Source: Halichondria panicea (Eukaryota > Porifera > Demospongiae > Suberitida > Halichondriidae). From it: DNA of 64,000 nucleotides. Positions 15,138-64,000 of the stretch are shown piece after piece. The position numbers and the translations under genes are program-made. The DNA lies in assembly GCF_963675165.1 (NCBI RefSeq), contig NC_087379.1, positions 1,373,001-1,437,000 of the forward strand. The letters run 5' to 3'. Position 1 is the stretch's first letter. Each line of letters opens with the position of its first letter. Below the pieces are notes generated by a model. That model was not told where the DNA came from. It did no database searches and was given only the letters and a program-made list of their open reading frames with translations.

Positions 15138-16141
15138 CTATAATAGTGAATGTGTGTCCACACCGTAAATCTCCTGTAGAAAATCAAGATCACGCTTTGA
15201 AGGCCCATCAGCATAACTTAAATGTCTCTTGTGAATCCCTCTTAAAACTGTCTTTTCTTCTTCACTGAGGTTTCCATCAGCCTCAACTTCTGATAGATTT
15301 GTGTGCTCTTCATTCTTAAGCCAGTTCACGTCAAACCTGTATATATACACATCATCATTATTGACATGCATGCATGTAATTGCTACACGGTGCCATAATT
15401 ATACTTACCAGTAGTGCATGATACTGTCTGGATCGTACTCTGGCTTAAACGTGGCATCTTGTGACCGCTCTTCCAACATTTCTCTTTCAAAATTCACGTT
15501 CTTCATTCGAGAATCCGCTTTCATTTTTCTCACATCCAGCAAGCTGTCCGCTACCTCCCAGAAGTCAGGACTCTGGTGTTCGTGGCACAGACCAAGGGCA
15601 TGGCCAAATTGATGCATTACAAGAAATTTCTGCATATTGGGATCTAGACCTTTTAATGAAAAGATCATTGTGGGCTTAGATATATCTTGAACGGTCATCG
15701 CTTGGCTTCCAACCTTTGCCCAACATGAGCCACTAGCTGTGCCAAACATGAATTCAGAATGTAGATATTATATTTTAGTACCTTCAAATTTGACTCTGAT
15801 GTCAGCTTTATCTGCCCTATCAGTCTTCTTAAAGATTGGAATATTGGGAAATTATTTTGGATTCCAAGCCTCAGCCCAAGAGAGGATATTATCGATGTTG
15901 AGCACACCATACTCACACTCCCACTTTTCCTGCTCAAGAATATCGGGATTGAGAAAGTAGACATACAGGACGTCCCTCCCAGTCCAGAAGTTGACATAAG
16001 AATCAACTCCTTTCTGGTTAGCATCACTTAAGCCGTCTTCACCCAACAAGTCTGTGCGAGTTGAAATCTGGTGGAACAAATAGAAGCTAATTACTCTCAG
16101 CAAACTTGCGCACACGCACGCGCACATGCAGACACACATAC

Positions 16142-16502
16142 CAGGAGCGTATATAGCCAGGATTTTTTGGAAGAGAGGCAAAAGTATCAGCCACACAGCG
16201 CCGAAATTTTGACCGGAAGCCACGCCTCTTAATTATGACGTCATAATCTATTTCTCTATAGTTGGGTGTGGCCTGATGTTTAGAAAGCTAGTTTAGCAAA
16301 GAACAAGAACTGTCTATAGATTTAGACCAGAGTTTAGGGACTAAATCGTTTTGCTTGCCTACTAGCTAGCTAACTGCAGCAAGATTGGGAAGAAAGGGAG
16401 TGCTCAGCAAGATAATCAGCTACACTAACCTGAGCTGAGTAGTAGAGATCCAGACAAAGGGGGGGCATTTGCCCCCTTTGCCACCCCCTGCCTACGCCAC
16501 TG
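16142..16502. mobile_element. hAT-like MITE, copy 2
   Basis: It is near-identical in order and sequence to 5202-5554, sharing TAGCCAGGATTTTTTGGAAG, GCCACGCCTCTTAATTATGA and the CCTACGCCACTG end. It lies in the intron just upstream of the first protease exon of copy D. CA-rich flanks make the target duplication unreadable. Confidence 0.75.
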
Positions 16503-19371
16503 CATACACACACACATGCACTATACTATCTATTTATTTTGACTAAAGCCTGCAGGAGCTAATTCTAAGAACCCAAATTGGAGGTTATTAATTTACATAC
16601 ATGGACCAACCCACCCATGCAGTTACTATAGTTTTCAGAACATGTACAGCCAAGCCAACTTAAAGTATTACAGTAACCATGCAACGTCGAGTCCAAGATA
16701 AGTTTGACCTCAATGGCTTGCAGTAATTATTCAGCGCATGGCTCCAATGTACATGTGAATGCTTTATAATTCAGTGTATACTGTGGCTTTAAGTGCAACG
16801 GATGATTGGGGAGGGTTGGGAAAACCCATCTTCTCGACTCTCAAGGTTGGGCGTCTGTTTGTTTTTCTATTCCTATATATATATATAATATAATTATTAT
16901 GGTTTTGTGTTGTCTGCTCCTTTGTTCTTCTGCATGCATGGTGTACTGTAGTCCCCTAACTATTAGAAATTAATAGTGCAGAGCTTTTTACATTTTCTAA
17001 GCCCAATCAGTATATAGACACTGTGATAGACTATGTAAAAATAACCTAGCTTTATAGACACAAGTATACGTATAGGATTCCATACAGTAACTGAAAATAT
17101 TCTGCTGGCCATGAAGGCTAGATTCCAACCATCGTAAATAATTAGAAGCTTTCTGTTTGATTGGGAGGGTATGCGATTGACAATCTTTGCCCACCCCTAC
17201 CTTTGTATACCCTTCAAACACACACACACACATACATGCCTCCTGCGCATGCGTACCGAGGCATAATTATAATGAACTTACTTGAGGTTCAGATTGTTGG
17301 TTAGACTTAACACTCTCATGAGGGGGGACCTACAATAATACAAAACCAATGCATGAAACCAAGATAATTCGTGCATGCAAATATTGAATCCTATACATGC
17401 AGACACCAGACCTACAAATCTTTGTACTATATAGATAAGCACAATATGAGGGTGGTAACTTCCCAATATTATGATTTACATTAGCACCACTTTCCCCTTT
17501 TATGAAAACACACAACACGCAGATTATAACACGGTTTTAGAGGTCAAATTGAGACACACAAGCAGATACCAGTAATGAGCAACTGACTGTAATTTCTACC
17601 TTTAGTACCAACAGTATTAACTTGAAACTAGTACTGCCACAAGATAGAAATTACTAGGGGCTTTCTTTTTTGCCAGGTATTCGTTTATTATACCGGCATC
17701 TGCTTGTGTGTCTCCATTTTCACTTGAAAAATTTTCATTCCTCTAATGTTATAATCTGTGATTTGCATGATAAAGGGGAAAAGATCTAAAATGCTGACTG
17801 CATGACTCTTTAACTCTATATAGACGGACATAAAGGGTGTACTCACATTCTGAGCCAGGTACTGGCAGACTTGAGCAGCTACTTCTGTTCTATTTAACTT
17901 CAGTAGCAGCTCCATCAGTGCTCTGTATGTTGCCATGGATGGACGGTATTGCTTCCATAACCTCAAGCACCTCACCATGGCTGTCTGAGTATCGTATTGA
18001 AGGAAGGTAGTTCTCACATCATGTTGTTCAGCGGCACTCAGACCCATTGCTGCAGAGTAGAGCTTCACACTGTCGAAATAGGTAGCTATGACTGGAAGTT
18101 CATTACCAGGGATCACCTGATCAAGTTGGACGGTATCGACATGGTACTTGTCCATCAACTCTTGCAGATCAACTCCTCCCACATCAGAGGCTGTGCCTGC
18201 AAGGTGTACTTAATGTCTTATTTACCCTATATATAGTTTACACCAGATTATTTTTGTGTTTACATTCATTGGACCATGCAGTTAAAATTACTTTCCCATC
18301 TTATCTCTGCCCCACGATATGTACAATGATACCAATGACAACAGAACTCTTAAAACTGCATAGCCAGCTGAGTATTACACTCAAAGCGGTCGTTATTATC
18401 GTCTAGCTTCATCCCTAGGTGGGTTTAGTGCATTACTTGCCTCCACAAACGGTGCCCCTGAGGTATACACCTGGTAGCTTATAGAGAGGCTCGCTATACT
18501 CAAGAAAATTAATTCAACTCTAAGGCTATTGTGATTCTAACATTGACGTATTGACATTACGTCTATATATTGCATTTAATAAGGCATTGAATGTGAGCTA
18601 GAGTGCTGTCTTCAAATGTGACCATACAAAATTTTTATGACCAACAATTGTAAATTAGCTCCAACAAATTATGTCAGTACGTTATTACCATCTCTATAAT
18701 AATAACTTATTTTCCTGTTTATTTTACCTAAGTTCTTTTGGTCAGGAAACGCAATTTTTAAGATGGCTTCCTCGACTTTTGGACAGAGGTTTTCAAGTTC
18801 CACAGGCTCTGATCTGAGAGCTTTCAGGAAAGTGTCGAGGTGGCAGTCAGGACTGCTTTGAAACCACTTCTGCAACATTGCACTGAAACACTCTCCAACG
18901 TCCGATGGATTGTTTTTCCGAATGGAGTCCAAATCAAACACAGACATAATATTTAGACTGATGCCAATTTTAAACCACATGTTCTTTCCTTGCTTATACG
19001 CAGCGTCATGCAGAGCGTTGAAGTACGGCTTGTCCGAGGGGGAGAGTTTGACTGTGTAATGAATAATACGTAGTTCAACTGGCTTATTCATACGTATATA
19101 TAGAGTATGAATAATTGCTATAATAATTAATCAAGGAATAAGTTTTATAATATAATCTCGGAGAGGGTGGTACATTAGCTGTATATATAAACTCTGGTGA
19201 AATCTCAAGGGAATTAGCAATAGACATGGTCCCATGGATACCAACACTGACATAAACACCTTTATCTTATAACACATTCGTACAACAACACCTAATAACA
19301 CAACAACTATAGGCTCAGTGTCTAAGCAATCTACCAAGCCTATATATTATAGCAGCTCATGCATGAGCCGG

Positions 19372-21440: not shown

Positions 21441-21576
21441 TATACCACACCTAAGAGGAGGATATGCACCCACATATCCTCCGCTAACGTGGTTACTCCG
21501 AGGCGGAGCCGAGGGGTATGTAACCATGGTAGCGGAGGATATATAGGGTGCATATCCTTCGAGTAGGTGTGGCATA
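21441..21576. mobile_element. Foldback MITE, ~135 bp
   Basis: The arms ACCACACCTAAGAGGAGGAT..GCACCC and GGGTGCATATCC..GTAGGTGTGG pair. The centre GGTTACTCCGAGGCGGAGCC is itself a hairpin. It lies in copy D intron 1. Confidence 0.75.
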
Positions 21577-31088: not shown

Positions 31089-34000
31089 ATGGATGACACT
31101 GCTCTAGTACTTCTTGACAGGGCTGAAGATAGAAAAGAAGAGGTTGAGATTACTAAAAGTATTGATACCCTTATATTTCGCATTGAAGACACATTTGAGC
31201 TTGAGAGAGGCAGCATCTCTCACCTGCAGATATGGAGTAAGAAGTTTAATGACTACAAAAATTTGAAAAAATTCGAGGAAGTGGAAGATGGATGCAAGAT
31301 AAATGCAGTGCCAATGGTGAGCGTAATGATCAAAGGCTTGCAGATCTAGTTACCAGGGTTTGTAAAACTACAAATGCTCAGACACATACGATTATTGTCT
31401 AGAGTACTCCTGTTATCGTACATGTAGTCTATCTTGAATACTGCAGACTTATAGATATAAATTGCTTTATCTCATTGTAGCCAGAGACTAATAGATATAA
31501 ATTGCTTTATCTCATTGTAGCCAGACATCAAAATTTACATTAATTATACTATATATAGTCTGTTGAAACTCGCAAGCCTTCACTGTTGCACGGCGAACAG
31601 TAGACTGGTGTAGAATCTCGTGTCGCACAAGTCAGTATATCAGATAAGATGATTTTAGGTGGCTGGGATTTTTGTGACGTTGTGATACTTAGACCACAAA
31701 ACTACTTATACACAACAAGTATGCTATATATAGTGCTGTGTTAGTACATGTCGTTTTCGTGACGTTGACGTTGACGATACAGTAGTTATACTCAAGTTTA
31801 TAACTTGCATGCTGGTAGTGAGCATCACGTGCATCCAATCTCACTATATCAATGATCTTGTGGTAACCGCATGCGGTCTAGCCACTTTAAATATCGTGGC
31901 AAACGTTGCACGAGTCTCTACACAGAGAGTGTCCGGTCTCTTTTTCGCATGTAAAAGTGCTGACTTCCAAATCTAGTAAATACAAGTAATAATCAATATA
32001 CTGACGATATTATTGATACCCATGCAGGATACAAACCCACCACACCCTATTAGCTTAAAACTGGAGTGATGAGTGACGAATTCCAGTGCTGTATAGCCTC
32101 AGGGTAGAATCCAAGTAATAATCCTTGAAATTTGATCCTTGAAAAATTAGCAATAGGTTTATAACGTCATGCCCTCGTGCTGCAAGACTCTTGCCCTCGG
32201 GTTCGAGTTGTATTGTTATTAGTTGTATATCCCTTGTATATCAGATAACTATATATAAGTATATGCGTGCAAGTATAGAGTATATAGTAAGATATACAAC
32301 CCCTTTGAAAGTCTGCAGTATCCCAGCCATACTGTACCAAAACTGAATAATTGGTCGTCTGTAATACTATATAGCATCTCTGAGACGCTAACGGAGAAAA
32401 TCGCAGACCTCCATCCCTTATCCAACCTTATAAATCCTAGAGTAGAACCCTATAGTTATTGCATGCATGCATGTATATATACACTGTCTTTATCAGCATA
32501 ATTGCAGAGGAAACAAGAGTCTGACCTGCCAACTCAGTCTCCAGTTTCCCCTGGCATGACTGAAGGGCCCCTAGTTTCACCAACCTTGGTAAGCTAAGCA
32601 AGTATTTGTATAGGAAATGCCCATGCATGCTTTACTTTACATACTTACAGACATACTGCACGGACTCATTAGGTGAAGACGAAGATGAAGCCTTGAGTGA
32701 TCATGATGCTAAACAGGAAGGTGCTAGCGGCTTTGCTCTAAAAACCAACATCTGGCCAGCTGGGAAGGACGTCCTGTTTGTCCACTTCTTCAATCCCGAG
32801 ATTCTTGAGCAGAAAAAATGGAAGTGTGAGTATGGTGTGCTCAACATCGATAATATCCTCTCTTGGGCTGGGGCTTGGAATACCAAGAAGTGTCCCAATA
32901 TTCCAACCTTTAAGAAGACGGATAGGCCAGATAGGGCTGACATCAGAGTCAAGTTTGAAGGTATAATATACATGGCTGTACTAAATATGAATCCATGCAT
33001 TGTTTGGCATATATATAGGTGGTACATGTTGGTCCAAGGTTGGAAGGAAAGCGACGACCGTTCAAGATATATCTGAGCCCACAATGATCCTTTCACTAAA
33101 AGGTCTAGACCCCAAAATGCAGAAATTTCTTGTCATGCATGAGTTTGGCCATGCCCTTGGTCTGTTCCACGAACACCAGCGTTCTGACTTCTGGGAGGTA
33201 GCAGAAAACTTGCTGGATATGAGGAAAATGAGAAGAGATCCTCGAATGAAGAACGTGAAGTTTGACAGAGATATGTTGGAAAAGCAGTCACAAGATGCCA
33301 CGGTGATGACGCCAGAGTACGATCCAGACAGTATCATGCACTACTGGTAATATCGCCATCTTTATGTTAATTCACATATGCATGCAAGTGTTATACTGTA
33401 TATAGGTGGTTATTATGCCTCGGTGCGCATGCGCAAGGGAGGTATACGCTATAGTGTGCGTGCGTGCGTGTCTGTCTGTCTGTCTGTCTGTGTAGACTGC
33501 TACAGCTGCTCAAGAATCAATGAGGTTCAAGTAAGAGTTTCTATAGGCTTCTAGTCATGTTTTCTTGGATTTTAATTCGTGGATTTGCAAAATAATGCTT
33601 TGTTCTCGAGTTATGCCTATACTTGGAATGCCATTGCAGCCTTTTCGGAAGCGCACGTAATCAAACTTGTTTACCGAGTGTTGCTACTCTACTTAGTAGT
33701 TAGCTCTGCACTAGAACGCTAGCTATTGGTAGCTGTAAGAGTGAGAAGAGAGCTGCAAGGCTCTGCTGATGATTAATTTTAGACCTGAACTTTGGCATCG
33801 ATTATTTTTAACAACACTCATGGTCGATCATTACCCACTTTTTGAGTTTGCTGCTGCATGCAAATCTTTATGTTATGTAGCTTTGGCATGCACCGAGGCA
33901 TCAGCACCTGTGGTGCTTTATTTTCGAGGCACTACATTTTCGAGGTTTTCGAGGATTGACTCAAAACACTAGTGCCTTGAAAATTGGTATTACTGTAGGG

Positions 34001-43632: not shown

Positions 43633-43654
43633 TTAGTGTATATCAGGTAACTCA

Positions 43655-44779: not shown

Positions 44780-45225
44780 CACTGAGACAACATACTTAAC
44801 TCCACTAGCTCTTTCAGTACCACTGAAGTCTACATTCTCCACAATAACTGGGAAGATGTGCTTCTGGTCGCCATTATAGCTGTGTACAACTCACTCTTGC
44901 AGTATCGAGACATGATGTACTTGTTAGAGATGACTGCGATAAGAGCTTTGCATTTGTCCAGGCCCGTTCCTATGGCGGCATGCCAGTCACAGCCTGCTGT
45001 AATGTCCTCTGTATCAAGCCACACTGAGAAACTGGAAGTGTAAGGGTAAAATAAACACTAGAATCACCACATTCAGGGCATTGTATTCAAGTCAGTGACC
45101 CCTGCATGGCATGGCATCAGCCCTACTATCCTAAGCTCACCCATTTGCTTGCAGGTCATATACTTGGAGCTGTTTGACAAAGGGGACAACCTCAGGCTCT
45201 CAGCCATGCAGCCATAGCTCAAAAA
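44780..45225 (-). pseudogene. Decayed TIR gene of unit C
   Basis: The TIR core (WLDTEDITAGCDW ... SRYCKSEL) is easily read at about 45025-44860 but is followed by a frame change in the block encoding 'TANGDQ'. Exon 1 has insertions (TGCATGGC, TAT), and the last third of the domain plus the Pro/Tyr tail are missing. DNA of the last TIR intron survives at about 44140-44300. The gene has lost function while the adjacent protease stays whole. Confidence 0.85.
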
Positions 45226-45462: not shown

Positions 45463-48400
45463 ATGGATGATACTGCTCTAGTACTTCTTGACAGGGCTGA
45501 AGATGGAAAAGAAGAGGTTGAGATTACTAAAAGTATTGGTACCCTTATAGTTCACATTGAAGACACATTTAAGCTTGAGAGAGGCAGCATCTCTCACCTG
45601 CAGATATGGAGTGAGAAGTTTAATGACTACAAAAATTTGAAAAAATTTGAGGAGGTACGAGATGGATGCAAGATAAATGCAGTGCCAATGGTGAGCGTAA
45701 TGATCAAAGGCTTACAGATCTAGTTAATACCAGGGTTTCGTAAAACTACAAATGCTCAGACACATGCATATACGATTATCGTCTGGAGTACTCCTGTTAT
45801 CGTACATGTATAGTCTTAATTGATTGTAGTCAGATTTATAGATATAAATTGATTGTAGTCAGATTAAGTGTATATATACTATATATATATATATATATAG
45901 TCTGTTGAAACTTGCAAGTCGTCACTGTTGCACGGTGAACAGTAAACTGGTCAAACTCTGTGTAGAATCTCGCGTTGCACAGTCAGTATCAGATAAGATG
46001 ATTTTAGGTGGCTGGGGTTTTTGTGACGTTGTGATACTTAGACCACAAAACTATACTTATACACATATATAGTGCTGTGTTAGTACGTGCCGTGTTATAA
46101 CTTCAAGTTTATAACTTGCATGCTGGTAGTGAGCATCACGTGCATCCAATGTCGCTATATCAATGATCTTGTGGTAACCGCATGCGGTCTAGCCACTTGA
46201 GTTGCCACAAATATATCGTGGCAAACGTTACACGAGTCTCTACACGGAGAGTGTATGCCTATATATGCAGTGTCTTTTTTGCATGCAAAAGTGCTGACTT
46301 CCAAGTCTATATAGTAAATACAAGTAATAATCAATATCACTGCATGATGATATTGATACCAAGATACAACAAAACCACCCACCACCCTATTAGCTTACAT
46401 TGCTTGTTGCATGCATGCATGTTTGAGCAAAAGATCAAAGAAACCACAGTGCAAATATATATGGCATATTGCACAGTGAAGCCAGGCACAATAAGCTAAC
46501 AAGTCACCGCAGTGCAATAATTATGCCATAATTATATTTGCACATGCAGCCAGAAAGCTTGGTCAAAAGTTGGAATGAGCTCTTTTATATTGTTCCTATA
46601 TACAATAACTATAATAAATTATAAGAAACTGGAGTGCATTATAATTGATGTGTGATGGTGAATTCCAATGCCGTATATATAGGAGCCAATTTTAAGTAAT
46701 GATCCTTGAAATTTGATCCTAGAAGTTAGCAATAGGTTTATAACGTCATGCATGCATGCCCTCGTGCTGCAAGACTAATACAACTCTTGCCCTCGGGCTC
46801 GAGTTGTATAGTTATTATAGTTGTATATATATACTGTACATCCCTTGTATCAGATAACTTAAACCCATATAATAAGTGTAATTATATAGAGTAGCAAGAT
46901 ATACATCCCCTTTGAGTTGTGTGAAAGTCTGCAGTATCCCGGCCAGACTGTACCAGAACTGAATATATCCAATTGGTTGTCTATAATACTGTGTATATAT
47001 ATAGCATCTCTGAGAAAGAATTGTCTTATCCAACCATATAAATCTTAGAGTAGAACCCTATATGGCCTATTACTATAGATACTGCATGCATGCATGCATT
47101 TTACTATAGCTGCATGTCTTTATTAACTTAATTGCAGAGGAAACAAGACCAGCCAATTGCAACAACTCATCCAGTTCCCCCTGGCATGCCCCTGGCACCA
47201 ACCTTGGTAAGCTAAGCAAGTATTTGTATAGGAAATGCCCATGCATGCTTTACTTTACATGCTTACAGACATTCTGCACGGACTCGTTGGGTGAAGACGA
47301 AGATGAAGCCTCGAGTGATGCTAGCCAGGAAGGAGCTAGCGGCTTTGCTCTAAAAACCAACATCTGGACTGGGAAGGACGTCCTGTTTGTCCTCTTCCTC
47401 AATCCAGAGATTCTTGAGCAGGAAAAATGGAAGTGTGAAGGATCTGTACTAAACATCGGTAATATCCTCGCTTGGGCTGAGGCTTGGAATACCAACAAGT
47501 GTCCCAATATTCCAACCTTTAAGAAGACGGAGAGGCCAGAGAGAGCTCACATCAGAGTCAAGTTTGCAGGTACATAATCTATAATCTATAAATTAATATT
47601 TTACAATGTTAATTGGCACAGGTGGTACATGTGCGTCCAAGGTTGGAAGGCAAGCGACGACTGTTGGAGATGTATCTAAGCCCACAATGACCCTTTCACT
47701 AAAAGGTCTAGACCCCAACATGCAGAAATTTCTTGTCGTGCATGAGTTTGGCCATGCCCTTGGTCTGGAACACGAGCATCAGCGTTCTGACTTCTGGAAG
47801 GTAGCGGACAGCTTGTTAGATGTGGGAAAAATGAGAAACGATCCTCAAATGAAGAATGTGAAGTTTGACAAAGATATGTTGGAAAATCAGTCACAAGATG
47901 CCATGGTGACGACACCAAAGTACGATCCAGACAGTATCATGCACTACTGGTAATATCGCCATCTTTATGTTAATTCACATATGCATGCAAGCGATATATA
48001 GGTTTAACGTAAACTGGCTTATGAAGAAAGAACACAAGAATCTATCAAAAGTGGAGGCTGATGGAAGTCTCAGTGAAGATGAAAAGGCTATTTTGAGAGG
48101 GATTCACAAAAGACATCGGAGTTGTGCTGACAGGCCTTCAAAGAAAGATCTTGATTTTCTACAGGAGAACTACGGTATGTCCATGCATTCACAAAGCTTT
48201 ATCCACGTTATTAATTATAGAAGGAGTGTCATCCTCTCCGACCACAACTACTATAGGTACAGTGAAATGTTTTACTTGAAAGATATATATACTCTATACT
48301 CTTTCACGCACACGTATAGTCTCTCCTGTATCAGCCTCAGGTCAGCCACCCTCACTGCCAGCAGCACCTTCCTACGGGCGAAGTGAGTGGAATCAAACTA

Positions 48401-49511
48401 GTGCACAGAAATGTTATGTTTTACAATCAAGCCTATACTCACTAGCAAACATCTCTACTAGGTTCTACTAATTATTAAGACTTGGTAAGAGATCGATTAT
48501 AGTCTATTTCCTAATGCTAATATAGGAACTGACCCCATGCAGCTATACATAAACGAGGCTATTTTGCCGGGTAACTTGCTCAAATACGAAAGTTGTGTTT
48601 AATTCCTCGAAACATCATCTTGTTCAGCAATTTTTAACGTGCCCAGTCTGCATGTGAGCTACCTGTAGTATACTTGCTAATGACTGACCATATGCATGCA
48701 CACCTTAGTAAAACTGGTAGCATAAGACAGCTGTCTCATGTTTCTGGAGTTTTTTGTATATATGGCCTGGCCCCTTCCTACGCCACTGCACATGTGCATA
48801 GCTACATAACATCCATGCATGTGCATGTATTCATATTCACAGTCCAACTCTCTCCCTCTGACAAGCTGTACTTCAACACTCTACATGACGCTGCGTATAA
48901 TGGAAGGGGCATGTGGCATAACATCGGTATTCGTCTGGGTTTGTCTGAATTTGATTTGGACGCCATTCAGACAAACAATCTTTCAAAGGTTGAAGGTTGT
49001 TACCGTGCAATGCTGTTGAAGTGGTTTCAAAGCAGTCCTAACTGCTACCTTGACATTTTTCTGAGTGCTCTCAAATCAGAGAATGTGGGTCTGCTCCACC
49101 TGTACTCAAAAGTCGAGGAAGCCATCTTAAAAATTGCCTTTCCTGGGCAAGGTAACAATAGAAAAAGATCGGCAAAACGTATGTACTTTTAGGAGCAATA
49201 ATTATAAGCATATTCACTTGGCCTGGTAAAGGGGAGGCGCAAGGAGTCATACGAATATCAGTTACATGCATGTATACTGCTCATGCACCCCCAGGGCTTA
49301 TTTCAATGTCACTGTTGTGTGGCCTGATTTTTGTACATGTCATAAAATACAAGTCACCTAAATATTCTGATCTCACAATGTTTCTATGACCACCTTAGGT
49401 ATGCCGGAGGATCAAGCAAAAGGTGGACCACGAGGTATTCAATGTACTAGACACATGTGTGCACAATAATATGATATCCTAATTGCAGTTGCCAAGAAAC
49501 CACGAATGTGA
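45463..49511 (+). CDS. Copy C: PB1-like / metzincin protease / death domain
   Basis: Exons 45463-45690, 47138-47206, 47269-47569, 47622-47949, 48002-48174, 48221-48256, 48320-48382, 48843-49151, 49399-49434 and 49489-49511 give 521 residues. Layout and splice phases equal those of A and B. The N-terminal module is nearly identical to A (MDDTALVLLDRAEDGKEEVE). The active site HEFGHALGLEHEHQRSDFW and SIMHYW are whole. The catalytic-core start reads GTCASKVG where A, B, F, G and H have CWS, so the Trp is lost. The DD reads KLYFNTLHDAAYNGRGMWHN. An extra small exon (MPEDQAKGGPR) precedes the basic end VAKKPRM. Confidence 0.85.
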
Positions 49512-51020: not shown

Positions 51021-52692
<1,672 letters not shown>

Positions 52693-52863: not shown

Positions 52864-55800
52864 ATGGCGACTACAATTCAAGAGAAGAGACCTAGGAGTG
52901 GGTTGTTTCACAAACAAATGTCCACAGAGGAGCTGGTTTCTTGGCTGAGGGAGGAAGGCCTTGGACATAAGGACTGTGACATAATATTGGGTGGGTATGG
53001 CTCCAGCTAGCTCAGAGTAGAAATGACTATAATGACTATAATTATATTGTAGACAATGGATTTACTGGTACATCGTTTCTTCTTCTGGAGAAAAACGTAG
53101 TGAAAGAGTTGGGTATCAAGATGGGTGGTCAGATCATGATCACTAAGCTCAAGAAAATGGTAATTTGTGTGTATGTGTGGAAAGATAATTAGGAAAATCA
53201 TTTTGTGTGTAGACTAGATGGTGCTGTATGTACATGGAGCTGGCTATAGTTGTTTCGATTTCGATATAATGTGTACTCTGTGTTTCCAGGCTGAGGAGAT
53301 ATGCGCTGAGGTAGATGATCGATTGACCTTTGATACTCACTCGACCGTCCCAAATGATGATGTGAGTTGAAATATGATATGAGTTGAAATATGATGTTTG
53401 TTATTGTAATCCCATTCATTTTTTCCTACCCTCGGCCTCAGGGTCGTGTGGTGGTGCCTCCTGCTAGTACACTGATCATCAATGATATCAGAGAGAGCTC
53501 ACCCACTGGGGGGACCAGCACTAGTGGGGTCCAGGTGAGAGGAATGTGTGTGTGTACACTGGGGGGACCAGCACTAGTGGGGTCCAGGTGAGAGGAGTGT
53601 GTGTGTGTACACTGGGGGGACCAGTACTAGTGGGGTCCAGGTGAGAGGAGTGTGTGTGTGTACACTGGGGGGACCAGCACTAGTGGGGTCCAGGTGAGAG
53701 GAGTGTGTGTGTGCACTGGGGGGACCAGTACTAGTGGGGTCCAGGTGAGAGGAGTGTGTGTGCACTGGGGGGACTAGTACTAGTGGGGTCCAGGTGAGAG
53801 GAGTGTGTGTGTGTACACTGGGGGGACCAGTACTAGTGGGGTCCAGGTGAGAGGAGTGTGTGTGTGTACACTGGGGGGACCAGCACTAGTGGGGTCCAGG
53901 TGAGAGGAGTGTGTGTACACTGGGGGGACCAGCACTAGTGGGGTCCAGGTGAGAGGAGTGTGTGTACACTGGGGGGACCAGTACTAGTGGGGTCCAGGTG
54001 AGAGGAGTGTGTGTGCACTGGGGGGACCAGTACTAGTGGGGTCCAGGTGAGAGGAGTGTGTGTGTGCACTGGGGGGACCAGTACTAGTGGGGTCCAGGTG
54101 AGAGGAGTGTGTGTGCACTGGGGGGACCAGTACTAGTGGGGTCCAGGTGAGAGGAGTGTGTGTGCACTGGGGGGACCAGTACTAGTGGGGTCCATGTGAG
54201 AGGAGTGTGTGTACACTGGGGGGACCAGTACTAGTGGGGTCCAGGTGAGAGGAGTGTGTGTGTGTACACTGGGGGGACCAGTACTAGTGGGGCCCAGGTG
54301 AGAGGAGTGTGTGTGTACACTGGGGGGACCAGTACTAGTGGGGTCCAGGTGAGAGGAGTGTGTGTGCACTCCCCGACCAGTACTAGTGGGGTCCATGTGA
54401 GAAGTGTGTGTGTACAGTGACCTTCCTATTACCATGCATTAAATAATAGTTAGACACTGTTTTGGAGGTGTCTATGGGATTCAGAAGCCCAAAGGCACTG
54501 ATTTAGTATCCCGAGCGTAGCGAGGGTACTAAAGTGGCTGAGGGCTTCTAAATCACATGGACACCGACAAAACAGTGTCTAACTCATTTAGATAGTAGTG
54601 CGCATGCGCAAACTGCTTGACTACAATACAATTACTTGACAACGGAATACTAGGTATACTAAGTAAATTTGCAGGTATACTAAGTCCCATAGTATACCTG
54701 CTCTGAGGCACTTTTCCCATGTACTTCCCATGTAGATCTTATCAACTAGTGTCTAACTATAGCTAGTATAGCACTGATTGTATTATGACTCTTGTTGTAG
54801 GAGATGAGAGACCCTCAAGAGTCACCCACCAGGCAGCAGGGAGAAGAAGATGTGAGTGAGTGGGGACGGTTGCATTTAATAACTGATTAACAACAGCATT
54901 GAAATAGTTACTTTACTCTGACTTACTCTGGTATGTAGGTGACGAGAGAGCCAGTGTCTCGAGTACAGTCTAGTGGAGACGTGAGCAATGGCATTGTCTT
55001 AGTTACAGACTTAACTTTTTTCTTTCTTCCTACAGGGCTTCAGAGAAGAAGATGAGGTAAATAAAAGTCGTACTTTTACACTACTAATGCACTGTATGCA
55101 TACGTTACCTCAAGAGCTTGTCCTACCCATTATGATTTCGTATCACAATCTAATACCAGCAAATCCCCCGCCACACAGGCTCCTGTGTACTGCACCCAAG
55201 GCCTTGAGTCGGGCACTAGTGTGTTCTCCTTTGATCACACTGTGCACATGTACCGCAATAAGATATGGGCCGGGAGAGAGCTACTCAAAGTGACTTTTCT
55301 GAACCCTGACGTTCTCAACAGTTGGGGACTCACTAGAGACAATATCCTCGACTGGGCCAAGGTCTGGGACGTTGAAAATGAGAAAGTACCAACGTTCACT
55401 TGTTCCAAAGCAAAAGGAGACATTCGAGTGAAGTTGTCTGGTACGTATTGTAGTGCGGAGTGTAGTTAGTTCAGTACAGTCTCTGTTTGAAGGGAAATTG
55501 CGTTCCATGTATCAAAAAACCCTTTCAGTAAAGGCTCGAATAACTTATTTTTATGTTTGCAATCATACATGTATATACTTCCACAGACACTGAGGGATGC
55601 TGGTCAGCAGTGGGCATGGATGCAGAGAAGATTCAACCAGTAACTGATCCGACCATGGTCCTCAATCTCAGAGGACTACCAGCGCACCTCCAGAGGAGTC
55701 TGGTCATCCACGAGTTTGGACATGCCTTGGGGCTCGATCACGAGCACCAGCGCTCTGACTTCTGGGACGTTATGGGCGGCTATTTCGATAAAAAGAGGAT

Positions 55801-57201
55801 CCCTCAAGAACAATACACGAGGGTAGTCAAGAAATCTGATGCAGTGGATAAGGACAGAGTGTTGGAGTACAATCCCAACAGCATCATGCACTACTGGTGA
55901 GTGTGGGATTTGACCCATGCAACCCTATATGGATCTTAAAGACTATTTATTAATCCAATTTTACTACGTTTACGGAGTTGCGTACTCTTCCTAACGACTC
56001 TTGACGGTACGTGTACACACACATGTACGCATATATATAGATTTTGTACTTGCAATTCTTACATGACTGTAATTAACCACGCTGTTTTGAATGTTGTTTA
56101 GAGATGTGGGCCATTTACGCACGTAGAATGACACACTCATATCACAATGCCTGTACGTGGTCTGTACTCTGGTACTGTCACTGTGTATCCTAATTTTACA
56201 TGCTTAATTGAGCAATGTGGTGGTGTGTGTATGTTCACTGCTGCTCTTTATTAAATGAATTGTCAAGGTTTGATCTTGCTTGGTTGGAGAATCCTCGTCA
56301 CCGTATCCATGGTAACATTGAGGGTGACAACACACTGTCACCGACAGACAAACGATACCTTCTTGGAGTGCACAAGAGACAGGGAGAGGGCAAACTACCC
56401 AGTGACCCCTCAACCATCGACAAGCAATATCTAGTGGACATTTATGGTAGGTATATTGCTGGGCAATTTTCAGGCAATTTCCAAGAGCAAATTTTAGGGG
56501 GAGGCATGTTCGTACTTTGGCATTTAAAATTCCAAGAGAGGGCAAACCAAATCCAAACGGGGGGCAAAAGCCTGGTATAACATTTGTGTATTTTCAACAC
56601 CTCATTGTAGCCACTGTTGGTATCTGCCAAGGGTGACTGCCTATTGTAGCAGTATGTACTTGACACCATTACACCTCCAATACAGTTAACGATGAGCTGA
56701 GACAAGTGTCATCACCTGTGCCTCGACGAAAGGCAAGACAGTTGTCTCCTGCTACAAACACAAGACCCAACACTACCACTAGAGCAGCTCCAAGAAACCC
56801 TCAGTACAACAGTATTGATAAAACCGGTATGCATATACATGTACGTACGTTTGATTGGTTGTGCACTTATCTAGTCGTATGAGGTAAAGCTACAAAGTTG
56901 ATTCTTGTTTATTTCTGTAGACTCTGTTTTGCAAGTGAATGTCCACAAACAAGAGATTCTGAACACTATTTGGGATGTCCGTGCCCAGTGGAGAGTGATT
57001 GGTGCATATCTGGGCTTGTCGGTCGGTGAACTGGATGCAATACACGCTAACTCCAGTGACTACCTCAATAATGTCCTAGTGTCATGGATCACTCAAGGGA
57101 ACAAGTACATTGAAGAGTTACTGGTCGTGCTCCGGTCCTCAGCAGTGGGCAGGGCTGACCTCGCTGAGAAAATAGAGACCCTGAGGATTTTTAAACGCTA
57201 G
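52864..57201 (+). CDS. Gene F: SAM - metzincin protease - death domain
   Basis: Twelve exons: 52864-52990, 53053-53159, 53290-53361, 53442-53534, 54801-54851, 54939-54980, 55036-55056, 55179-55440, 55587-55896, 56268-56446, 56686-56826, 56921-57201; 561 residues. SAM (about 15-78; STEELVSWLREEGLGHKDC ... LGIKMGGQIMITKL) is split by the same phase-1 intron as in D, E and H. An acidic, variable linker made of small exons follows. The protease has DIRVKLSD, GCWSAVGMDAEKI, HEFGHALGLDHEHQRSDFW and SIMHYW, all key residues present. The tail (GVHKRQG...DPSTIDKQY), a basic Thr/Pro linker and a DD (IWDVRAQWRVIGAYLGLSVG) complete it. This is the most complete member with a SAM domain. Intron 4 holds an 18-copy minisatellite that repeats the donor of exon 53442-53534. 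The gene seems whole. Confidence 0.9.
53499..54416 (+). repeat. Minisatellite, ~18 copies of ~50 bp, each with a splice-donor-like junction
   Basis: The unit is ACTGGGGGGACCAGTACTAG + TGGGGTCCAGGTGAGAGGAG + a TGTG run. The first copy is the last part of the real exon ending GTCCAG|GTGAGAGG; the following copies repeat exon end, donor and first intron bases. Copies differ mainly in TG-run length and in CAC/TAC variants. Confidence 0.95.
54449..54583. mobile_element. Foldback MITE (GTTAGACACTGTTTTG ends)
   Basis: Perfect 16-base inverted ends GTTAGACACTGTTTTG and CAAAACAGTGTCTAAC bound 135 bp. The middle CCGAGCGTAGCGAGGGTACT resembles the loop of the 50.2-kb foldback. It lies in gene F intron 4. 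Confidence 0.9.
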
Positions 57202-57379: not shown

Positions 57380-59209
57380 ATGGCGTTGAGAACTCTAGAC
57401 CTGTCACCAGGAGAGGTATGTATAGGTGTGTGTTACAGTGTATGTATAATAATTATACTGAGACTGACTACATGCATACATGCATGCCCGGCTGCTTTAC
57501 AGCTAATAATTATACTAATGATCTGCTTGCATGATTCGAAAGGGATCGCCATCAGCGCACGAACCAGGTGGCTGAATTTTGTTCAATATAGGAGTACTTT
57601 TTTAGACTTTTATTTGTGGTTGAGGAGTAATTTATCATTCTGTTATTGGTTAATTAATGAGCATTTATATCTTCTATCGCTGTATCTCATGCAGCTGCCT
57701 AGTGACTCTAATGGAGATGTGGAGGAGGCTTGTCGTAGACAGGTGAGACTCCACACACAATCACATTCTGACGTATATGTGCTTATATACAAGGGCTAGC
57801 AGTTGATACAAAAATATAATAATTATACTTCCAACTGTTACTAAATTGTTTGTCCCAAAAGTGAGCTGCAAAGCGCAGCAGAGCTAGCTTAATAATTACA
57901 TTTCGATAATTATGTGTTCATTAAGTACTCCACAATATACATTATCTCGATCTTGTTAATGCTTCTACACCTATACAGTCGATTCCAATGTGCCCCTTAT
58001 CGCCACATTCTGACGATGAAGGTGATCAGTCTACAGATAGTGGTGAGGCAGCTGCTGTGGTTGTGAAGAAGAAGATTTGGAAGGAGAGAGAGCAGCTTAA
58101 TGTGCTCTTCATGAAACCTGAGGTTCTAGAGGGCTGGGGCATTGGAGTAACTCCCCAGATAATCTTGGAATGGGCTGGTGTCTGGAGGCGAGACAGTAAC
58201 AGCAAAGTGCCAATGTTTAAACAAACCACAAGCACCAGGCGTGCGGATATACGAGTGGAATTCTCAGGTATTATAATAGTACTTATAGCTGCACCTCACG
58301 CAATTCATAAATTTATTTAAGAGCCAGTTTTCCAGGTACCTTGTGCAAACGTACTGTGATTGTGCAAACTGTGATTGATTGAGCTATTTTTATTTCAGAC
58401 GAAGGCGGCTGCTGGTCGATGATCGGGAAGCGTGCAGAATCAGTTAAAAAGCCTGCTCCGACAATGATGCTAAATCTCTCCAATGACTACTGTGCCGATG
58501 AGCAGGGAAAGAGGAGTCTAGTCATCCACGAGTTTGGACATGCCTTGGGCCTTGATCACGAACACCAGCGCTCCGATTTCTGGGACGCGGTGGAACCTTA
58601 TTTTGACGTCACACGAATGAAGGATGATTCTCGTGTTTCTGATGCTCACTCTGAAAAGGATATGTCGTCGTTCGGAAAAGATTGGTTCAAGAAAAGATAT
58701 GGTGAGAGAAATGGAATCAGACGATTTTTCGGAATCAAGAAGAAATCCCAGGAGCAGAAAGTGGAAATGTCAGAGTATGATTCAGACAGCATCATGCACT
58801 ACAGGCGAGTTTGGTGATATTGCTCGTATTCACAGTATGCAGTGTATAGGGCCACCCTTTAGGCCAATAGAGGTTGTAATAAAGATGTGGCCTGCTAACA
58901 CAGATCAAACACATGTCATGAGGCCCATTAACCTAGCTGGTTGATTATATAGAGGGGGCTTGAAGTTGTGGTGTAGTAATAAAATGACCATGATTATTAT
59001 TGTGTTACTTGATTTGCAGTTTTGATGTTGACTGGTTCAAGGATCATCGTCTTCGTCGCAAACAGAGTCTGAAAGCAATTCCCGACACAGAGATAGATCC
59101 AAAGGTTAAGACGTACCTCATGGGAGTTCACAAGAGGCACAACCGTATGTCTAGGGACCCCTCCAGTACTGATCTGGCTTCCTTGGAGAGTGCTTACGAT
59201 AGTAAGTAG
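57380..59209 (+). CDS. Gene G: metzincin protease without SAM or death domain
   Basis: Exons 57380-57415, 57695-57742, 57979-58267, 58399-58804 and 59020-59209 give 322 residues. A short N-terminus (MALRTLDLSPGE) replaces SAM/PB1. The protease is whole: DIRVEFSD, GCWSMIGKRAES, HEFGHALGLDHEHQRSDFW, SIMHY. A basic insertion of about 20 residues (RYGERNGIRRFFGIKKK) precedes the Met-turn and is longer than in its sisters. The intron after the Met-turn uses a GC donor (TACAG|GCGAGT), giving SIMHYS instead of SIMHYW. The frame ends at YDSK after the conserved tail; no DD exon follows before the convergent gene H. The start is 178 bp after the stop of gene F. It could be a free catalytic unit or lack a DD lost recently. 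Confidence 0.8.
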
Positions 59210-60026: not shown

Positions 60027-63000
60027 TCACTTGGTAACTGAATTAAGAAGAAATAACACAATAATAAGTGTGAGGTGGGTATACAATTGGCACAGCTTAC
60101 GATAGGCATCTTTCAGAAATTGTATATCAATTGATGATGGGTGTTTGGCATAGTCGTTGTGCCTCTTGTGGATACCCCTCAAATACATCTTCTCCTTGTC
60201 TGAGAGTTTAGGGTCATGGTCTAACGTTCTCCTATGACGAAGTCGTGGGTCTTTCAGCCAGTCCTTGTCAAACCTGTGTATATATATATACATGCAGCGA
60301 AGCATTGTTACTACACAGTACAGTGTTATAGATGTCATACATGTATAGAAAAATTGTAGAGAAGGAAGCTCTTCATGAATATAGGGGGAAACTCATCCAA
60401 GCAAATAAGGGTCATGGAAAAATGCATACATGCAAGTATTAACAATGCTCAAAGCTAGCACCTCACACATCCAGAGCTGTTTCATTGTTATTTCTGACAT
60501 ATACATGTACAGTAGACACACACACACTCACCAGTAGTGCATTATGCTGTCTGCGTCATATTCAGACAACTTTCCCTTTTCCTTCTTCTTGAGCCAGTCG
60601 TTACCGAACGCAGCCTTTCCTTTCACGGATGAGTAGTCTCCTGTGCGTGAGTCGTGCCCCATAGCTTCAACGTTCAAATGTTTCTCAACCACATCCCAGA
60701 AATCGGAGCGTTGGTGTTCGTGCTCGAGCCCCAAGACATGCCCAAATTCATGGATGACCAGATGCTTTTGAAAATCTTGAGGGAAGCCTTTGAGGTTAAA
60801 TACCAAGGTTGGTTCCTTGGAATCTTTAACTTTCTGTGCATCCATACCCACCTTCGACCAGCAACCACCCGTCTCTGCAATATCATCATAAAAGCATAAT
60901 TGTGGAAGAAGTTAATAATTATGTATAAGAGAAGAAGTTAGCATACCTGAGAACAGAACACGTATATCTGCTCTCTTGGCAGATTCATTCACAATGAATT
61001 CTGGAATGGCATCGCACTGATTCCAGGCATCATTAGCCCACTCCAATACCATACTGATAGACATGGACTTTTTACTAAATCCATGTCCACTCTTCCACGA
61101 CTCGAGAACGGAAGGGTTTAAGAAATGCACTTTCAGAACTTCTCTCCCCTTCCACAGCTTCTGAGTACGGACATAAGCAGCTGCTGCACCCTGTGTCCCA
61201 ACACAGTCAGCGTCTGTTTCTTCCTCTGGTAGCTCCGGAGGTCCCATGCAGCGTGGTGTCGTCTGTATCAAGATAACTACATGACATTTTCAGTGTTAAA
61301 TTCGATGAAAAGATGAATACAAATATGACTTACTCCCAAAGTATATAATTTATATAACACGGTTTTTGTCACAAAATTATGCTTTCCTGGGGCTACAAAG
61401 CTCAAGTAACAATTATGATTACGCCAAACACAAAATGCTCACAGTTTTTGAAACTGTTTGGGTACAAAACTGCAAGTTCTACACGTGCACTTACTGGTTT
61501 GTACTGTGGACCAACTTCTCCTGTTTCCATCTCCTCCGAATCCTGCAAGTTATAGTTAAACAATGGCCTCGAGTGGTATATTTGATTTACACGCGAGAGT
61601 AATCTGATAAACCACGAGGCGCAGCCGAGTTGGTTTATCTGATTACTCGAGCGTGTAAAGCAAATATACCACGAGAGGCCATAGTTTAACTGGCTTGTAC
61701 TATGTTTAGAACTGTACTACTATGTTTAGCTACTTCCTGTCATGCTTCTTCAATGAATATGCTTATAACTACTGTTTGCCGTCACTGTTGCTATAGCTAT
61801 GCAATGAATTTGCTATTTTTTTAAAAAGCGATGGCTGATTCAAGCAAGCGTCTATGATTCAAGCAAGCAATTGTGAAGGCTGTGTTTCTGCATCTTTATA
61901 GAAGGCACTTCAAGAAAGTACACTGGTGCTACTTGTCTACAAAGAGTGCAAATGTACCCCAAAATATCATTCCACAAGCCTACTGTACTGGCCCAGTGCA
62001 GTGCAGTCTCTTTAGTCTGAGAAACACTTGGCAGTCTGGACCCTTCTTACTGCTCCTGGTCCCATGCAGCAATGTAATAAGCAGGTTGTGACAACCAATG
62101 TTGAAAGTTGAAAAAAAGCAACACAAACAAACCAGTATCGTTCGATTCACGATCACGGAGTTCTTCCAAATTTGCCTCCTTTTTGGAACTATTCATCGCT
62201 CGAACTTGGCTCTTTTTATGTTGACTAAAATCATTAGTATAGTAGTCTGTTTTGTATTGAATTCTCTCTAACTCTAATATTGCTAATATTGATTGAATTG
62301 AGTAGTGTGTCATTGTTTTAATTGAAACAGTGTGTCAATTTTGTTGCAAAGGTGGGATACTGTATTCAGTTCTAGCTGTACATGTAGTTTGACCACAAGC
62401 CATGGTATATGGCTGTTATACACTAGGGTATAACAGCCATATACCATGGCTGTGGTCAGACAGGTTGTATAAGTAGTATAAACTACAACTGAAGCCTTTG
62501 ATCTTTGGTGCAACCATAGTACAACATACAATACACCATATCACATTTATTTTTATTACCGAGTAATACAATTCCTGAACATACGTACTCAATAATCTCT
62601 TAATTAAATGGTGTGGTCCAGCCTGACCATGGAAATACTTACCACTAATTTGAGCAATATTTCCTGGCCCACTTGTCCGAGGCCCATATCTTGGCAGTCC
62701 TCTTTCGTCAACAATACGACAGATTCTGGAGTGACTTCTTCGGCTGCAAAAATACATTGTTTAATAGTACAAATGTATACAACACATTCGATACCAGCTA
62801 GAACTTAGCTTTATGCTTACTGCAGGCCGTAACTTAACTAGGCTTACTGCACAGCCTGGCAGCATTAAACTAGATAACCAATATCAGTTCTTACAGCTCT
62901 CACGACCTAGACTCACAAGCAGTCACTGTTGCAGGCTAACTGTTCGCCTGCAACAGTGACGGCTTGCTAGTCTACTCACGACCAGCTAAATGAATTTATA

Positions 63001-63106
63001 ATCTAGCTTCATACATACCTTTCAGAGTTTGACAGTCCTCTTGGCTCAGTCCCATCTCTTTCAGCCGCTCTACAAGATCATCTGTTGACGGCTGCTTCAA
63101 CGCCAT
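60027..63106 (-). CDS. Gene H: SAM - metzincin protease, no death domain
   Basis: Exons 63106-63019, 62743-62643, 61542-61495, 61262-60947, 60874-60532, 60273-60101 and 60037-60027 give 359 residues. SAM (STDDLVERLKEMGLSQEDCQ ... QDMGLGQVGQEILLKL) has the shared phase-1 intron. The protease shows FLNPSVLESW, ADIRVLFS, GCWSKVGMDAQKV, HEFGHVLGLEHEHQRSDFW and SIMHYW. The tail is FDKDWLKDPRLRHRR ... IHKRHNDYAKHPSSIDIQFL, and the last exon adds only LTK before the stop. No DD exon is seen. A linker exon near 62.16-62.22 kb (KKEANLEELRDRES) is possible but out of phase. It runs convergent to G and in tandem with gene I, whose stop is 205 bp upstream of its start. Confidence 0.85.
61556..61689. mobile_element. 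Foldback MITE in gene H intron
   Basis: The arms TTAAACAATGGCCTCGAGTG..TATATTTG and CAAATATACCACGAGAGGCC..TTTAA pair over most of the 134 bp, with a loop ACCACGAGGCGCAGCCGAGT. Confidence 0.85.
62390..62458. repeat. Near-perfect hairpin, ~32-bp arms
   Basis: TGACCACAAGCCATGGTATA..GGCTGTTATAC pairs with GTATAACAGCC..TATACCATGGCTGTGGTCA across a 6-base loop. It lies in gene H intron 2. Confidence 0.95.
62910..62972. repeat. Foldback (CAAGC..GTCACTGTTGCAGGC arms)
   Basis: Arms GCAGTCACTGTTGCAGGC and GCCTGCAACAGTGACGGC surround TAACTGTTC. A half copy (CACTGTTGCACGGCGAACAG) is found at about 31580 and 45920 in the first introns of copies A and C. Confidence 0.85.
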
Positions 63107-63310
63107 TGCTGGATTTTAGTCTGTTATAGACTATGACTCCGCCCAACTAGATTTACAAGCAACGCCCTGTTTCACGCCCATCTACTATAATAGATCTATG
63201 GAGGTTTGTCTCTAAGAATAACATACCAGTACAAAACACACACAGCTAAACAAACAAAATATACACATGCATTTCATATAAGCTTCTATAATTATCCTGT
63301 TTTTGTTTTC

Positions 63311-64000
63311 TCAAAGGCCGAGATCTTTTCTTTTTTGTTCATCATCAATTCCCAAAATCTCGTCAGCTATATCGTCCTTACTCACAGTAAGTGATCTGAG
63401 AGCATCAATCAGCTGGTTTGTTTTTGCCTTGCCTGTGTGCATCCACTTTTTCAGCACGTCCTCATACTTGTCTTCAACGTTGTGATAGTTAGTGTTGATT
63501 GCCTCAATGTCACCTTCTGTAAGCCCCAACTCTCTACCTATCATCTTCCATTTACTGCGAGCTTCCCAAGTTGCATTTATGATATGTCGTAAATGCACAT
63601 TTATTTTCAGGGTAACTCCACCTATACAGAGTTAGTACATGGTAATATTAAGTCAAGGAAGCATTGTATATACGTGTCCTTACCAACAGTGGATGGTTCT
63701 TTTCGTGTTACTAAAGTATCGAAATTCTCAGGAGCAATGAACTTCTTGCCTGTAGTGAATGTTAATACATAATTAATTATTAGACTGCTATTATATCACT
63801 CAGCTCACCATAAGCCTCCACTAGTGCCTTGTAGTCATTCTTTGAAGGGTGCTTGAGCAGTTGGCCTCCCTGGCTTCTCTTAACAATGCCCTTGAGATAC
63901 TTCTTCTCTTTGGTAGTCAGTGAGGTGTCACTCCCAATGGATTCTGCAGAACGATGTGCTTTATCTCGTATCCATTTCACTTTGAACCTATTGTGATAAT
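63311..64000 (-). CDS. Gene I: 3' end of a further metzincin-type gene with death domain (runs off window)
   Basis: Exons 63987-63809, 63749-63684 and 63621-63311 join in phase. The first matches the conserved tail that follows the protease Met-turn in all sisters (FKVKWIRDK ... LTTKEKKYLKGIVKRSQ ... HPSKNDYKALVEAYG), and its acceptor expects the same phase-2 junction after TG. The last exon is a full DD (LRHIINATWEARSKWKMIGR ... LIDALRSLTVSKDDIADEIL) and stop. The HExxH exon should lie just beyond base 64000. Confidence 0.8.

What the first reader, a model, noticed from the sequence alone, without database searches (positions are those of the whole stretch)
15138..64000. A gene family of intracellular metzincin proteases fused to SAM, PB1-like and death domains
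Seven HExxH-class catalytic exons (copies A, B, C, F, G, H plus dead D), and an eighth gene cut by the window edge, share one protease core. The core is HEFGHALGL-x-HEHQRSDFW with Met-turn SIMHYW. In A, B, C, F and D it is spliced in phase to death-fold or SAM/PB1-like modules. Secreted astacins and matrixins have signal peptides and propeptides; none is seen here. Death-domain recruitment of a protease is the known logic of caspase activation, but a metzincin in that role is not something I know as described. I infer a death-fold-controlled zinc protease system, perhaps for immunity or cell death, with TIR, DD-DD and Roc-COR-DD genes alongside.
Basis: partly seen in the sequence, partly recalled or inferred. 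Interest (0 to 1): 0.92.

Follow-up and report, generated by a model that had tools for sequence, protein, structure and literature searches.

The report
Death-domain-fused zinc protease gene family
This animal genome carries a large family of genes that appear to join a bacterial-type zinc protease to the protein-docking domains used in cell-death signalling, with a conserved cysteine that probably keeps the enzyme off until it is recruited; if confirmed, it would be a death-signalling protease unrelated to caspases.

Summary
The core observation holds. Six intact HExxHxxGxxH exons (A, B, C, F, G, H) and a dead one (D) lie in the window, and an eighth gene (I) is cut by its edge. Predicted genes A, B, C, F, H and I read in frame with matching intron phases. 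At least 47 copies exist in the genome; I read 33, and 30 keep the zinc motif. The N-terminal module is SAM (F, H) or a probable ubiquitin-like fold (A, B, C, I; PB1 unproven). Eighteen of 33 copies have a death-domain exon downstream on the same strand; in gene I it follows across introns of 59 and 62 bases.

Two corrections. (1) A prosegment is probably present: a short linker carries one cysteine in 30 of 30 zinc-intact copies read; the two His-to-Gln copies lack it. Myroilysin, the nearest solved structure by sequence, uses a cysteine switch. (2) The core is not a typical animal astacin: it groups with bacterial proteases (98/95), and one clade with seven canonical astacins of this genome is rejected (p-AU 0.0007).

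Best reading: a latent cytosolic metzincin recruited by death-fold partners. Splicing, activity, location and function are unshown.

The parts
31089..31316 (+). Gene A exon 1: N-terminal ubiquitin-like/PB1-like module with start codon; in-frame TGA just upstream, no CAG/TAG acceptor between
32651..32960 (+). Gene A exon 2: Cys linker (TYCTDS) and N-terminal part of protease
33019..33346 (+). Gene A exon 3: catalytic core HEFGHALGLFHEH ... SIMHY
34085..34257 (+). Gene A exon 4: C-terminal part of protease
35769..36080 (+). Gene A death-domain exon (by similarity to C and others; no Pfam Death match at E <= 0.05)
38632..38865 (+). Gene B exon 1: N-terminal ubiquitin-like/PB1-like module (154-base intron to exon 2)
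39020..39323 (+). Gene B exon 2: Cys linker and protease N part
39371..39698 (+). Gene B exon 3: catalytic core (GC donor)
39767..39939 (+). Gene B exon 4
41102..41419 (+). Gene B death-domain exon (Pfam Death 21.9 bits, just under the cut-off 22.6)
45463..45690 (+). Gene C exon 1: N-terminal ubiquitin-like/PB1-like module
47269..47569 (+). Gene C exon 2: Cys linker and protease N part
47622..47949 (+). Gene C exon 3: catalytic core
48002..48174 (+). Gene C exon 4
48843..49151 (+). Gene C death-domain exon (Pfam Death 17.6 bits, under the cut-off)
52918..53159 (+). Gene F SAM domain in two exons (52918-52990, 53053-53159); SAM_2 24.5 bits, over the cut-off 20.5
55179..55440 (+). Gene F exon 2: Cys linker and protease N part (small exon 55036-55056 before it)
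55587..55896 (+). Gene F exon 3: catalytic core
56268..56446 (+). Gene F exon 4 (AAG acceptor)
56921..57201 (+). Gene F death-domain exon with stop codon; Pfam Death 25.4 bits, over the cut-off
57979..59201 (+). Gene G: exons 57979-58267, 58399-58804, 59020-59201; protease only, no N module or death domain found
60101..63106 (-). Gene H: SAM 63106-63019 + 62743-62643 (Pfam SAM under cut-off), protease exons 61262-60947, 60874-60532, 60273-60101; no death domain found
63311..63987 (-). Gene I (eighth gene, rest in L029): exon 4 63987-63809, linker exon 63749-63684, death-domain exon 63621-63311 with stop; introns 59 and 62 bases; Pfam Death 44.6 bits
15162..15986 (-). Copy D: zinc His-to-Gln, linker Cys absent, in-frame stop in exon 2; no death domain downstream
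18756..19052 (-). Orphan death-domain exon of the A/B/C subtype, upstream of D

Best explanation
A multigene family of cytosolic, latent zinc proteases controlled by death-fold docking. Shown at DNA level (predicted exons, no transcripts): an N-terminal interaction module (ubiquitin-like or SAM; in some contig-C1 copies possibly a death fold), a short linker with one conserved cysteine, a bacterial-type metzincin domain with intact zinc motif, and in many copies a C-terminal death domain. Inferred: the linker cysteine caps the zinc and keeps the enzyme off (cysteine switch, as in bacterial myroilysin). The N module and death domain bring several copies onto a death-fold platform, and crowding lets them cut each other's linker, or lets the cysteine be oxidised, which frees the zinc and starts cleavage of host or invader proteins, leading to defence or cell death. 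Substrates and platform partners are unknown.
For: Fusion: phases 0-1-2-1 at homologous junctions in the models, 154-base intron between module and protease in B, 59- and 62-base introns before the death domain in I; same exon order in two copies on another contig (L024, L025); N-terminal exon of A found only beside protease copies, 6 of 6. Cytosolic: start codon on the module; in A, C and I no CAG/TAG acceptor lies between the upstream in-frame stop and the ATG; no membrane-length hydrophobic stretch in 6 of 6 models. Active: 30 of 33 copies read keep HExxHxxGxxH. Latency: linker Cys in 30 of 30 zinc-intact copies read, 13 of 13 clusters below 60% identity, the only invariant linker column apart from the W that opens the catalytic domain; absent in both His-to-Gln copies; a Cys 26-50 residues upstream of the catalytic domain in 56 of 69 placeable bacterial relatives against about 19% expected from composition. 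Nearest solved structure by sequence is myroilysin, E 6.8e-16; [quoted passage not shown] also PMC9629494).
Against: No transcript was available, so no splice junction is proven; A, B and C have 0.7-1.5 kb between exon 4 and the death domain. G and H lack a death domain, and 15 of 33 copies read have none downstream within 5 kb. The death domains of A, B and C do not reach Pfam's cut-off. dN/dS between copies is often 0.4-1.0 in exon 3, so constraint is weak to moderate. Linkers were cut by hand, and in several C1 and C7 copies the splice junction is not clear. B begins with a short hydrophobic run as strong as some bacterial leaders. D and L031 are close relatives, so the joint loss of Cys and zinc ligand is one event. 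The bacterial Cys count is inflated by related strains. L018 keeps the motif but its exon 3 is split over two frames. Nothing ties the family to infection or cell death.
Confidence: 0.5

Rival explanations
1. Annotation artefact: protease genes and death-domain genes are separate neighbours that were duplicated together.
For: The genome is full of death-domain exons (503 candidates; 148 matches from the 150 scored); two strong A/B/C-subtype death domains sit on contig C5, where no family copy was found; in A-C the gap is 0.7-1.5 kb.
Against: Phase match at the modelled junctions, introns of 59 and 62 bases in I and 154 bases in B, same order at loci on another contig, N-terminal exon of A found only beside protease copies.
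Confidence: 0.1
2. Inactive or decoy role: the protease domain is a scaffold or bait for microbial proteins, not a working enzyme.
For: D and L031 lack a zinc ligand; L031 shows no stop in the parts of exons 2 and 3 read; the family evolves fast; the core resembles bacterial proteases, including a weak match to the effector model LegP (E 8e-8, far under its cut-off).
Against: 30 of 33 copies read keep the zinc motif; the linker Cys is kept where the zinc site is kept.
Confidence: 0.15
3. Cytosolic protease with a housekeeping or developmental task (for example turnover of SAM or death-fold assemblies), not defence or cell death.
For: No expression or infection data either way.
Against: At least 47 copies, clusters, different N-terminal modules, dead copies and TIR neighbours look like a conflict-type family, as described for Amphimedon death-fold families (PMC8195603, section read).
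Confidence: 0.2
4. Secreted astacin-like enzymes whose signal exon was missed.
For: In B, F and H a CAG/TAG acceptor lies between the upstream stop and the ATG; B begins with a short hydrophobic run, mean hydropathy 2.17 over ten residues, like some bacterial leaders.
Against: A, C and I have no such acceptor; B's run is followed at once by GRKRK and aligns with the first strand of the module in the other copies; SAM and death domains are cytosolic modules by established knowledge.
Confidence: 0.05

Closest known systems
Myroilysin and other bacterial M12A/astacin-like proteases (Pseudomonas, Variovorax, Accumulibacter homologues found here)
   Same: Catalytic core (E 6.8e-16 to myroilysin; tree branch 98/95); Cys 26-50 residues upstream of the catalytic domain in 56 of 69 placeable
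   Different: The bacterial proteins were not scanned for extra domains; no death-fold fusion was noticed. Myroilysin is described as secreted (abstract start of PMC4377995 in the listing)
Animal astacins (M12A): astacin, meprin, BMP1/tolloid
   Same: HExxHxxGxxHE and SxMHY signature; Pfam Astacin over cut-off
   Different: Those are described with signal peptide, propeptide, aspartate switch and extracellular partners (PMC9848320 and PMC9629494 passages); this core lies outside seven canonical astacins of the same genome (p-AU 0.0007)
Death-fold-controlled caspases and the DD-paracaspase MALT1 (recalled)
   Same: Protease joined to a death-fold docking domain
   Different: Zinc metzincin, not a cysteine protease; order module-protease-DD
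Amphimedon death-domain/TRADD-N expansions with caspase, PNPase or HD effectors (PMC8195603)
   Same: Lineage expansion, death folds plus variable effector domains
   Different: No metzincin effector named in the section and passages I read; TRADD-N was not tested here

Membership tests
Astacin (M12A) catalytic domain | HExxHxxGxxH zinc motif and SxMHY Met-turn; Pfam PF01400 over 22.5 bits | tested here: met
   7 of 7 models match Astacin (bits printed over cut-off for A, B exon 3 and G exon 3)
Animal secreted astacins | Signal peptide | tested here: not met
   a hydropathy scan and not a trained predictor: no leader-like N-terminus in 5 of 6 models; B starts with a short hydrophobic run read as the first strand of its module
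Animal secreted astacins | Aspartate-switch propeptide | tested here: inconclusive
   30 linkers: a Cys is invariant, no Asp is; the exact propeptide motif was not searched
Animal secreted astacins | Shared clade with this genome's canonical astacins | tested here: not met
   p-AU 0.0007; 7 of 98 PF01400 matches used as the canonical set; their secretion was assumed, not tested
Cysteine-switch metzincins (myroilysin type) | Conserved Cys in a segment upstream of the catalytic domain | tested here: met
Cysteine-switch metzincins (myroilysin type) | That Cys binds the catalytic zinc and is removed on activation | not testable with these tools
   needs structure or assay
Death domain (PF00531) | Match over the curated cut-off | tested here: met
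   2 of 5: I 44.6 and F 25.4 bits over 22.6; B 21.9 and C 17.6 under; A none at E <= 0.05. Profile of all models hits FADD at E 4.4e-4
SAM | Match over the curated cut-off | tested here: met
   F 24.5 bits over 20.5; H 13.4 under; L030 copy 21.0 over
PB1 | Recognisable PB1 sequence or fold | tested here: inconclusive
   no Pfam PB1 hit; model pLDDT 52 with strand-strand-helix start; best solved match BILBO1 N-terminal domain E 0.005, which I recall as ubiquitin-like
Death-fold-recruited protease (caspase logic) | Recruitment through the death domain activates the protease | not testable with these tools
   needs binding and activity assays

The most novel reading that the evidence does not exclude
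An animal captured a cysteine-switch metzincin of bacterial kind and rebuilt it into a caspase-independent executioner: interchangeable N-terminal oligomerisation modules plus a C-terminal death domain gather latent enzymes on death-fold platforms, where proximity opens the cysteine switch and triggers zinc-dependent cell death or pathogen cleavage.
Probability: 0.33. Interest if true: 0.92.

Novelty: new variant of a known kind. Interest (0 to 1): 0.77.

Why it matters
Death-fold recruitment is, as I recall, the classic control of caspases. A large animal family that puts a zinc metzincin in that place, with a built-in latency residue, would show that this logic is not tied to one protease fold. 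It would also be an intracellular branch of the astacin-like proteases, which a 2023 review describes as extracellular (PMC9848320, passages including parts of the abstract), and a case of a bacterial-type protease used in animal signalling. The cysteine gives a single-residue test.

Tried and rejected
Kinship with this genome's canonical astacins was tested and rejected. Caveats: 27 of 74 extracted bacterial proteins and 7 of 98 PF01400 matches were used; fungi, oomycetes and other animals were not available; the bacterial set was found with patterns taken from the query; the root is midpoint only.

PB1 identity: Pfam, PDB profile searches and an AlphaFold model were tried; all weak. The exon 3 model reached pLDDT 71.5 but covers only part of the domain, and I draw nothing from it.

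PADLOC gave nothing for 7 models. NCBIfam gave weak matches to AbsR1 and LegP, far below their cut-offs. Four relatives in viral contigs were found and not followed.

TIR as a fixed partner of the family was rejected: matches at E <= 1e-8 lie at A, B and C and at two distant places (C9, C10), and none was found beside the other copies read.

An N-terminal death domain in the C1 copies (L015, L020) is suggested by eye and by a Fas match at E 0.009 but not by Pfam; left open.

Papers: nine searches of the held library bore on this question; one search was on myroilysin. No listed title or abstract start reports a metzincin fused to a death domain, but some lists were cut (20 of 32, 10 of 55, 12 of 35) and most listed papers were not opened. 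I read one whole section plus passages of PMC8195603, and passages of PMC9848320, PMC9629494, PMC12909245, PMC11797021 and PMC3482391. Most subscription papers, and supplements, were not seen, so earlier description is possible.
Full report
What was checked. The window is C3:1373001-1437000 of an unnamed 131 Mb genome in 39 contigs. The metzincin signature was found in six intact exons and one with HQ in place of HE. Of six direct-repeat families of 200 bases or more, five are these exons, the module, death-domain and TIR exons (D2-D6); D1 is a tandem array at 11 kb.

Gene structure. The models share one plan. An N-terminal module ends in phase 0. Exon 2 begins with a short linker and holds the first part of the protease (ending phase 1). 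Exon 3 carries the zinc helix and Met-turn (ending phase 2). Exon 4 ends the protease (phase 1) and joins a death-domain exon, in gene I through a small linker exon. Genes A, B, C, F, H and I read through without a stop; G reads through exons 2-4. B and G use GC donors, F's exon 4 an AAG acceptor. The joins are hand-made predictions: no transcript was available. The strongest are gene I, with introns of 59 and 62 bases between exon 4, linker exon and death domain, and gene B, with 154 bases between module and protease.

Domains. Pfam Astacin matches 7 of 7 models. Death is over cut-off in 2 of the 5 death-domain exons (I, F), just under in B, under in C and not seen in A; A's exon is 59% identical to C's. 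A profile of the models finds FADD at E 4.4e-4. SAM is over cut-off in F, under in H. The module of A, B, I and J, scanned, has no Pfam match that reaches a cut-off; the nearest solved chain is the BILBO1 N-terminal domain, E 0.005, and the AlphaFold model is poor (pLDDT 52). Ubiquitin-like is my best guess; PB1 is not shown.

Replication in the genome. Two tblastn searches gave 56 and 52 matches. In one search, 47 of 56 have E <= 5.8e-8, on nine contigs; the nine weaker ones include canonical astacins. Fifteen of the 47 lie within about 100 kb around the window. A limit on fetched letters allowed me to read 33 of the 47. Of the 33, 30 have the full zinc motif (34 hits, because the exon of L018 is split over two frames); D and L031 have His-to-Gln and L026 is a fragment without it. 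Eighteen of 33 have a death-domain exon downstream on the same strand within 5 kb (home-made profile, i-E <= 0.003; I added); 15 have none that I found. L027 and L028 have one upstream instead, and L023 has two on each side. L024 and L025 on contig C6 repeat the whole order module, ex2, ex3, ex4, death domain. The module of A is found in 6 places and 6 of 6 are just upstream of a protease copy on the same strand. The death-domain subtype of A, B and C has 10 strong matches (E <= 5.6e-26), 7 downstream of a copy on the same strand, 2 on contig C5 away from any copy and 1 orphan near D: so that subtype is used elsewhere too.

Cytosolic location. The start codon stands on the N module. In A, C and I no CAG or TAG acceptor lies between the upstream in-frame stop and the ATG; B, F and H have one or more. 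No membrane-length hydrophobic stretch occurs in 6 of 6 models. B starts with a short hydrophobic run (mean 2.17 over ten residues, as high as some bacterial leaders used as yardstick), which I read as the first strand of its module. This was a simple hydropathy scan.

The cysteine. Exon 2 opens with a linker of 30-39 residues (15 in L021). Its sequence varies freely, but one cysteine stands near its start in each zinc-intact copy read: 30 of 30, and 13 of 13 after clustering below 60% identity. I cut the linkers by hand; in several C1 and C7 copies the junction itself is unclear. L026, a fragment, was left out (its nearest such Cys lies 46 residues away). D and L031, the two copies with a lost zinc ligand, read STRTDLLGED after the predicted junction and have no cysteine there; they are close relatives, so this counts once. 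Among bacterial relatives 56 of 69 that could be placed (of 74 extracted from 75 loci) have a cysteine 26-50 residues before the catalytic domain, against about 19% by composition; many are related strains. Myroilysin is the nearest solved structure by sequence and uses a cysteine to block its zinc (PMC9629494, passages). I therefore read the linker as a short prosegment.

Origin of the core. A tree of 7 family members, 7 canonical astacins of the same genome and 27 bacterial proteins separates the family plus 21 bacteria from the canonical astacins plus 6 bacteria (98/95). Holding family and canonical astacins together is rejected, p-AU 0.0007, with one long bacterial row left out. Several Pseudomonas relatives begin without a leader and carry an N-terminal cysteine. 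Direction and age of any transfer are not shown; a 2023 review proposes that bacterial astacins came from animals (PMC9848320, passage of the abstract).

Evolution. Pairwise dN/dS (pairs with dS under 1.2) is mostly 0.25-0.5 in exon 4, 0.4-0.8 in the death domain, 0.5-0.65 in the module and 0.3-1.1 in exon 3; it exceeds 1.5 for D and L031 in exons 3 and 4 and for L024 and L025 in the module, at very low dS. Constraint is present but loose.

Mechanism. Shown: the anatomy above, as predicted from DNA. Inferred from established knowledge of caspases and cysteine-switch metzincins: death-fold docking concentrates latent enzymes, linker cleavage or oxidation frees the zinc. Not shown: splicing, location, activity, partners, substrates, link to immunity or death.

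Known or new. In the held library, nine searches on this question listed no paper whose title or abstract start describes a metzincin joined to a death domain; several lists were cut and most papers were not opened. The nearest is the account of Amphimedon death-fold expansions with caspase, PNPase and HD effectors (PMC8195603, section read). Protein databases with domain architectures were out of reach.

Noticed in passing
30345-30653, 37902-38201, 44744-45033 (-): Three TIR-domain exons lie on the opposite strand just upstream of genes A, B and C, so each TIR gene is probably head to head with a protease gene and may share its promoter (first TIR exon not identified). The SRYCKSEL stretch keeps the Glu that I recall as catalytic in TIR NADases. 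The third copy is split over two frames.
   Followed up: partly
10443-13406 (-): A 988-codon open frame holds a P-loop-like stretch (GPSGIGKTT, by eye) and overlaps a tandem array of mostly 24-base spacing that is open in several frames; no Pfam match at E <= 0.01.
   Followed up: no
53.5-54.5 kb: A long stretch of short repeats, seen in the translations, lies inside the predicted intron of gene F between the SAM exons and the protease.
   Followed up: no
23565-26578 (-): MBT-repeat exons (Pfam MBT 106 and 95 bits for the two scanned), an ordinary chromatin gene that points to an animal genome.
   Followed up: partly
L014/L018 and L015/L019 (contig C1): Very similar pairs of family copies, apparently recent segmental duplicates; L018 has a split exon 3.
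   Followed up: no
L021 1-1423: A tyrosine-recombinase-like frame (by eye) upstream of a family copy, perhaps a mobile element.
   Followed up: no
L039, L058, L071 and similar (Pseudomonas): Leaderless bacterial relatives of about 240-250 residues with an N-terminal Cys and a KRSVG-like basic site just before the catalytic domain, suggesting a cleavable cysteine-switch prosegment.
   Followed up: partly
NCBIfam NF050131: The model named beta-glucuronidase AbsR1 matches these zinc proteases over the catalytic region (best E 8.6e-14, far under its cut-off); the name may not fit the fold.
   Followed up: no
17691-18209 (-): A second, different death-domain exon (Pfam 23.0 bits) between the orphan death domain and copy D.
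   Followed up: partly
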